64,000 nt of DNA from NCBI RefSeq assembly GCF_017498525.1, contig NZ_CP071796.1, positions 4,162,041 through 4,226,040 on the forward strand, written 5' to 3'. Made by a program: the position numbers and the translations under genes. Numbering within the stretch: position 1 is the first letter of the stretch; each line of letters opens with the position of its first letter. Positions 41,873 to 42,005 of this stretch are shown piece by piece. The DNA is from Ottowia testudinis. GTDB lineage: Bacteria; Pseudomonadota; Gammaproteobacteria; Burkholderiales; Burkholderiaceae_C. The notes under the pieces are model-generated. The model had not been told where the DNA came from. It saw only the letters and a program-made list of their open reading frames with translations, and made no database searches.

Positions 41873-41897
41873 AAAAAACCCCGGCCGAAGCCGGGGT
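41873..41897 (-). terminator. intrinsic terminator of the predicted small RNA
   Basis: Eight-bp stem with a UUCG tetraloop followed by six T on the minus strand. No annotated minus-strand gene lies to its right within hemB's upstream region, so it must end a non-coding transcript. Confidence 0.88.
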
Positions 41898-41971
41898 GGA
41901 AAAAGCCTGTCTGCTGTCACACATCAAGGCTCCCGCTCAGGGAGGAAAAGCGGGGGGCGGCAAGCCGCCCG
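41873..41971 (-). ncRNA. predicted small RNA with anti-Shine-Dalgarno hairpin loop
   Basis: About 100 nt on the minus strand between the divergent hemJ and hemB genes. Four hairpins follow the predicted start in order: GGGCGG/CCGCCC with a CUUG loop (41970-41955), CCCGCU/AGCGGG with loop UUUCCUCCCUG (41954-41932), AGCC..G/C..GGCU (41931-41904), and CCCCGGC-UUCG-GCCGGGG (41896-41879) with a six-T run. The second loop contains CCUCC, the anti-Shine-Dalgarno core of 16S rRNA. No ORF of note lies within. From memory, Rfam lists a 'betaproteobacteria toxic small RNA' family that may be the same; not verified. Confidence 0.75.
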
Positions 41972-41976
41972 AAATG

Positions 41977-42005
41977 AATATATCAAAAGTATCTATGCAT
42001 CGCAA
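41977..42005 (-). promoter_or_regulatory. promoter of the predicted small RNA
   Basis: TTGCGA (42005-42000), 17-bp spacer, TATATT (41982-41977) on the minus strand. Start expected near 41970, at the base of the first hairpin. Confidence 0.75.

What the first reader, a model, noticed from the sequence alone, without database searches (positions are those of the whole stretch)
41873..42005. Strong small-RNA candidate with an anti-Shine-Dalgarno loop between hemJ and hemB
Seen: TTGCGA-17-TATATT promoter, four consecutive hairpins, loop containing CCUCC, UUCG terminator with six U, all within 135 bp on the strand with no gene. Known: anti-SD loops are used by RNAs that bind mRNA ribosome sites or the 16S tail region. 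Inference: a trans-acting translational regulator, possibly of heme genes or general. It may match an Rfam betaproteobacterial toxic sRNA family, from memory only.
Basis: partly seen in the sequence, partly recalled or inferred. Interest (0 to 1): 0.8.

Follow-up and report, generated by a model that had tools for sequence, protein, structure and literature searches.

The report
Anti-hemB small RNA, known family
The window carries a good copy of anti-hemB, an already catalogued but functionally uncharacterised small RNA of betaproteobacteria whose conserved loop could cover ribosome-binding sites of messenger RNAs; promoters in its relatives suggest a link to envelope-stress control.

Summary
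In detail: minus-strand promoter (TTGCGA-17-TATATT), four hairpins, open CCUCCC loop and UUCG terminator between hemJ and hemB; no shuffle of 200 folds as well. It is a known family, Rfam RF02837 anti-hemB (64.3 bits, cut-off 49.5), called ncS04 in Burkholderia cenocepacia, where papers report RACE, Northern and Hfq co-purification. It is not the toxic-sRNA family RF02278 (15.6 bits here, cut-off 50), which has one separate copy in this genome. Covariation (12 of 19 pairs change on both sides) and 130 G-U against 14 A-C cells show selection on the minus-strand RNA. hemB is divergent in 73 of 101 loci. Most likely an Hfq-type trans-acting repressor of translation initiation; targets unknown, hemB an unlikely one. 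Not found in print in my searches: a covarying 5' hairpin outside the Rfam model, a sigma-E-like promoter in 31 of 50 order loci outside the family (not in the window), and an exchange of the second conserved loop. New member of a known family, with a testable sigma-E lead.

The parts
42000..42005 (-). -35 box TTGCGA
41977..41982 (-). -10 box TATATT, extended by TG
   Evidence: TATATT also in the three same-genus loci L077-L079
41955..41970 (-). hairpin 1 (5' hairpin; transcript start guessed at about 41970 from the -10 box); outside the Rfam model; its counted pairs covary
41932..41954 (-). hairpin 2, stem CCCGCUU/GAGCGGG
41940..41945 (-). CCUCCC (anti-SD) in the open loop of hairpin 2
   Evidence: open in 97 of 100 MFE folds of relatives
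41904..41931 (-). hairpin 3, stem AGCCU/AGGCU
41913..41922 (-). GUGUGACAGC in hairpin 3, conserved in the window's family of bacteria
41878..41897 (-). terminator hairpin with UUCG loop, U-rich run at 41877-41868
41870..41956 (-). match to Rfam RF02837 anti-hemB, 64.3 bits
42076..43080 (+). hemB, divergent neighbour
   Evidence: 334 aa; name from sequence knowledge
42063..42068 (+). CACAAT, possible -10 box of hemB next to its ATG
   Evidence: 12 of 33 hemB-linked family loci, expected 0.07
41272..41700 (-). hemJ, next gene on the same strand
   Evidence: name from sequence knowledge

Best explanation
It is the gene of anti-hemB (RF02837, ncS04), a roughly 100-nt small RNA with its own promoter and terminator. 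Four hairpins hold a nearly invariant loop, UUCCUCCCU, open. With Hfq this loop pairs with purine-rich ribosome-binding sites of several mRNAs and blocks translation initiation. Shown here: family membership, structure, selection on the minus strand, conserved loop, position. Taken from papers on the Burkholderia homologue: the transcript and Hfq co-purification. Inferred: trans action, SD blocking, the target set.
For: RF02837 at 64.3 bits, cut-off 49.5. 247 of 299 family genomes match at E<=1e-4 (233 over the cut-off), 216 of 300 order genomes (190). CCTCCC in 101 of 101 fetched loci and GCTTYWCCTCCCTGAGC in 90 of 101 (partly by construction, loci were chosen by score). CCUCCC unpaired in 97 of 100 MFE folds. 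12 of 19 pairs with changes on both sides, shuffles 8.5; 229 such cells, shuffles 72. G-U 130 cells against A-C 14. 28 of 101 loci show no hemB in the fetched flank yet have the RNA and CCTCCC (a few are cut by contig ends). ncS04: 105 nt, 3' RACE, Northern (figure legend), co-purified with Hfq. Analogues: S17 represses an mRNA, with RBS-complementary sites (PMC11722255); NcS27 affects growth through its CU-rich region (PMC5688073).
Against: No target of anti-hemB is known. My search for perfectly complementary SDs gave, among 31 loci compared, only one pair with a shared product. qPCR of ncS04 showed no change in any of seven conditions. No expression data for this organism. Conserved linkage to hemB is not explained by a purely trans role.
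Confidence: 0.72

Rival explanations
1. Cis regulator of hemB: the RNA, or merely its promoter, interferes with the divergent hemB gene, or acts as antisense to a read-through transcript into hemB (as the name suggests).
For: Divergent hemB 63-312 nt away in 73 of 101 loci, none in the same direction; 59 of 81 matches in 80 named loci. In B. cenocepacia ncS04 lies between genes in the order <- -> <-.
Against: 9 order loci without hemB in the fetched flank keep the RNA; 6 of the 9 have the full sigma-E-like promoter and 9 of 9 its GAACT. In the window's genus hemB may start at its ATG. Inference: cis pairing would not keep an SD-complementary loop unchanged.
Confidence: 0.14
2. Leader or attenuator of hemJ: promoter and terminator form the hemJ 5' region.
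For: hemJ lies downstream on the same strand in 34 of 51 family loci, in 28 of these 34 at 30-108 nt after the end of the match (window 170).
Against: hemJ in 0 of 49 order loci although the RNA is there; strong terminator. Alternative structures were not searched for.
Confidence: 0.07
3. RNA that acts by titrating a protein (Hfq or another) rather than by pairing.
For: Conserved loops on strong stems; a second conserved loop GUGUGACAGC.
Against: The loop is an SD complement; two other RNAs with such stretches appear to act by pairing.
Confidence: 0.07

Closest known systems
Rfam RF02837 anti-hemB / ncS04 of Burkholderia cenocepacia
   Same: Score over the cut-off over the whole model, hairpin order, CCUCCC loop, terminator; divergent hemB; similar length (ncS04 105 nt).
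   Different: Here hemJ follows on the same strand; in B. cenocepacia the next gene points the other way. The window has GUGUGACAGC in hairpin 3. The Rfam model starts after the 5' hairpin.
RF02278 Betaproteobacteria toxic sRNA / double-hairpin RNAs (NcS27); Bordetella S17
   Same: Short, terminator-ended, open C-rich anti-SD stretches, same likely mechanism.
   Different: 15.6 bits here against a cut-off of 50; the genome has a separate copy at G000:C1:1022955-1023018 (59.7 bits). That copy scores 25.1 bits with RF02837, so common descent stays open.
NmsR sRNAs of Neisseria (from a PMC5688073 passage)
   Same: CU-rich unpaired stretches complementary to RBS regions.
   Different: No sequence comparison was made here.
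Enterobacterial sigma-E sRNAs (MicA, RybB; recalled)
   Same: Sigma-E-like promoter before the RNA in many relatives.
   Different: No such promoter in the window; no sequence likeness claimed.

Membership tests
RF02837 anti-hemB | covariance-model score at or above 49.5 bits | tested here: met
   64.3 bits, model 1-81 of 81
RF02837 anti-hemB | conserved stems with open anti-SD loop | tested here: met
RF02837 anti-hemB | place head-to-head with hemB (usual, not universal) | tested here: met
   hemB divergent, 120 nt from the match start
RF02837 anti-hemB | expressed and Hfq-bound | not testable with these tools
   seen in papers only for B. cenocepacia ncS04
RF02278 toxic sRNA / double-hairpin RNA | score at or above 50 bits | tested here: not met
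   15.6 bits, E 0.83 in a 261-base search; not among 15 matches in the own genome (150 of 323 candidates scored)
RF02278 toxic sRNA / double-hairpin RNA | toxic when over-expressed | not testable with these tools
   -
sigma-E regulon sRNA | GGAACTT-N16/17-TCTNA-type promoter | tested here: not met
   0 of 51 family loci, window included; 3 of 51 with a looser pattern, L017, L020, L093, not the window

The most novel reading that the evidence does not exclude
Anti-hemB was originally a sigma-E (RpoE) regulon small RNA of this order of betaproteobacteria, a functional counterpart of MicA/RybB that dampens translation under envelope stress. The line leading to the window's family replaced the sigma-E promoter by a sigma-70 one and exchanged the second C-rich loop for GUGUGACAGC, so an old stress sRNA became a housekeeping one while keeping its main loop unchanged.
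Probability: 0.45. Interest if true: 0.6.

Novelty: new member of a known kind. Interest (0 to 1): 0.38.

Why it matters
It is a widely conserved RNA (216 of 300 sampled genomes of the order) with no target or function in the papers I found. The fixed loop, the 5' hairpin, the difference of promoter type between lineages and the loop exchange turn an unexplained Rfam entry into concrete tests: does RpoE drive it in some relatives, and which mRNAs does the loop bind? If the sigma-E link holds, betaproteobacteria have an envelope-stress sRNA that has been overlooked.

Tried and rejected
Membership in RF02278: rejected for this place. Target search: CAGGGAGG-N3-10-ATG in the own genome gave 8 places (backwards control 1); one has a 10-nt match before a frame that starts like a lipoprotein and runs past the locus end (501 aa seen); Pfam gave nothing on the first 60 residues. 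The 10-nt version had matches in 73 of 150 family genomes, with 4 backwards-control matches; that excess is expected for any SD, so it says nothing by itself. Of the 30 loci given there plus one own locus, only L162 and L164 shared a homologous product. Several products look exported, but no control was made, so I draw nothing from it. Descent of anti-hemB from or with RF02278: inconclusive. RpoE autoregulation: the strict promoter pattern failed in the 260 nt before rpoE in 22 of 22 genomes; a looser one, chosen after looking, is present in 10 of 19 order genomes, expected 0.24, and in 0 of 3 family genomes. Literature: 'RF02837' 0 papers; anti-hemB with Burkholderia and sRNA 2; ncS04 with Burkholderia 2; combinations of RpoE or sigma E with sRNA words, at least 5 of 6 or 4 of 6 terms, 0. 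Only the open-licence library was searched.

Own errors: the hemB frame was off by one, mended; one helix was typed one column off (34.8% of its cells paired), corrected.

Full report
What is there. The finding at 41873-42005 minus is real. The RNA fold has z -4.21 and no shuffle of 200 reaches it; the other strand has z -2.49. The loop-and-stem pattern GCTTYTCCTCCCTGAGCRGG occurs once in the window with up to 3 mismatches, expected 0.02.

Identity. An Rfam scan of the window gives one match over its cut-off, RF02837 anti-hemB, at this place. The homologue in Burkholderia cenocepacia is ncS04, listed as anti-hemB, 105 nt, 3' end by RACE (PMC5688073, passages), among the RNAs of a Northern figure (legend), reported as co-purified with Hfq in an earlier study and flanked by genes in the order <- -> <- (PMC4603805, passages). 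It is also listed for B. pseudomallei as a trans-acting RNA (PMC3521395, passage).

Distribution. RF02837 matches at E<=1e-4 in 247 of 299 genomes of the window's family and 216 of 300 of its order; the filters used there can lose weak matches. Two genomes have six matches each (G087, G543), and Nitrosospira briensis has two copies in tandem. Their titles are betaproteobacterial (Variovorax, Polaromonas, Paraburkholderia, Pandoraea, Nitrosospira, Methylovorus and others) except three MAGs labelled only Proteobacteria and one labelled Thermoplasmatota.

Loci used. I analysed 101 loci: the window, the 60 loci given (best scores, 30 each), and 40 that I picked down the two printed, capped listings. 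They lean to good scores, so loop conservation is partly by construction. 51 belong to the family and 50 to the rest of the order. One duplicate (L075) was dropped from the alignment, leaving 100 rows; still counts it.

Structure and selection. On 100 rows and 19 pairs, 95.9% of cells pair (shuffled 87.0), 12 pairs change on both sides (shuffled mean 8.5, reached by 1 of 500), 229 cells do (shuffled 72.3, 0 of 500), and sliding the partners destroys the signal. The strongest part is the 5' hairpin: 6 of 6 pairs change on both sides, and this hairpin lies before position 1 of the Rfam model. 99 of 100 rows form at least four pairs upstream of the anti-SD hairpin in their own MFE fold. The anti-SD stem is nearly invariant, with one pair changing C-G to U-A in 14 rows. 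Within the family (46 of 51 loci; I left out L017, L018, L020, L022, L093 as divergent) 8 of 19 pairs change on both sides, shuffled 3.3, 0 of 500. By stem: hairpin 1 all 4 pairs, hairpin 2 one of 7 (six never vary), hairpin 3 one of 4 in a single row, terminator 2 of 4 in two rows each; further pair types were not above shuffles (495 of 500 reach them). Related rows and a structure taken from the alignment inflate such counts. G-U pairs outnumber A-C cells 130 to 14, or 77 to 14 without the loop-closing pair, which points to the minus strand as the RNA.

Place. hemB is divergent at 63-312 nt in 73 of 101 loci, 33 of 51 in the family and 40 of 49 in the rest of the order; hemJ follows on the same strand in 34 of 51 and 0 of 49. 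Loci without hemB in the fetched flank keep the RNA; whether those genomes have hemB or a second copy elsewhere was not tested. In 12 of 33 hemB-linked family loci, among them the window and its three same-genus relatives, a box such as CACAAT stands 3-12 nt before the hemB ATG (expected 0.07), which suggests a leaderless or nearly leaderless mRNA. If so, the RNA is not antisense to hemB here and hemB offers no SD to block. The other 21 of 33 do not show this box.

Promoters in relatives. Of the 50 order loci outside the family, 31 carry GGAACTT (up to 2 mismatches) and TCTNA with a spacer of 16 or 17 at a nearly fixed place before the RNA; 0.79 expected from single-base shuffles, 2 in reversed sequences; in the family 0 of 51, reversed 1. 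With the pattern [GT]GAAC[TC]-N15-18-TCT the counts are 32 of 49 (expected 0.15) and 3 of 51 (L017, L020, L093). The two boxes are fixed while flanks and spacer vary. The distance to hemB varies, and 6 of 9 order loci without hemB keep the motif (9 of 9 keep GAACT), so it belongs to the RNA. It resembles the sigma-E consensus (recalled). An RpoE gene is present in 22 of 22 genomes tested, the window's included. The looser motif, chosen after looking, stands before rpoE in 10 of 19 order genomes, but the strict one in 0 of 22, so the assignment to RpoE is suggestive only. Among 81 matches in 80 named loci 10 have the looser motif, including both Nitrosospira species (one of the two copies in N. 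briensis) and Methylovorus mays; Paraburkholderia, Burkholderia and Pandoraea do not. In the family, sigma-70-like boxes scoring 9 or more occur in 28 of 51 loci, window included, against 3.3% of shuffles. That the sigma-E form is the older one is inference; no tree was built.

Loop exchange. A conserved GUGUGAC-type stretch in hairpin 3 occurs in 43 of 100 rows and a C4U-type stretch in the terminator half in 40 of 100; none has both and 17 have neither. A second contact site may have been exchanged between lineages.

How it works. Best reading: an Hfq-assisted trans-acting RNA whose open CCUCCC covers Shine-Dalgarno sequences, as supported for S17 of Bordetella, which represses one target in a reporter system (PMC11722255, abstract and passages), and for NcS27 (PMC5688073, passages; review PMC10987360, passages). 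The family's own targets are unknown and my search did not find them.

Verdict. A sound observation of a known RNA family; new for this genome, not new in kind. The sigma-E-like promoter in relatives is the part most worth following. I found no report of it, searching for anti-hemB, RF02837, ncS04 and RpoE or sigma-E combinations in the open-licence library.

Noticed in passing
window 41741-41757 (minus), between the RNA and hemJ: GGAAGGCGCCGCAGGCG is part of a dispersed GC-rich repeat: 23 exact and 16 one-mismatch copies in the genome, control 1. One copy (G000:C1:1022906-1022922) lies beside the RF02278 RNA gene.
   Followed up: partly
L009 1501-1564 (G000:C1:1022955-1023018): The genome's one RF02278 toxic-sRNA/double-hairpin RNA over the cut-off, 59.7 bits.
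   Followed up: partly
L049-L116, upstream of the RNA: Sigma-E-like promoter in 31 of 50 order loci, absent from the window.
   Followed up: yes
G087 and G543; L231 (Nitrosospira briensis): Multiple copies of anti-hemB: six matches in each of two genomes, a tandem pair in Nitrosospira.
   Followed up: no
window 42063-42068 and relatives: CACAAT box next to the hemB ATG, suggesting a leaderless hemB mRNA.
   Followed up: partly
L216: The loop pattern in a MAG labelled Thermoplasmatota; chance or contamination.
   Followed up: no
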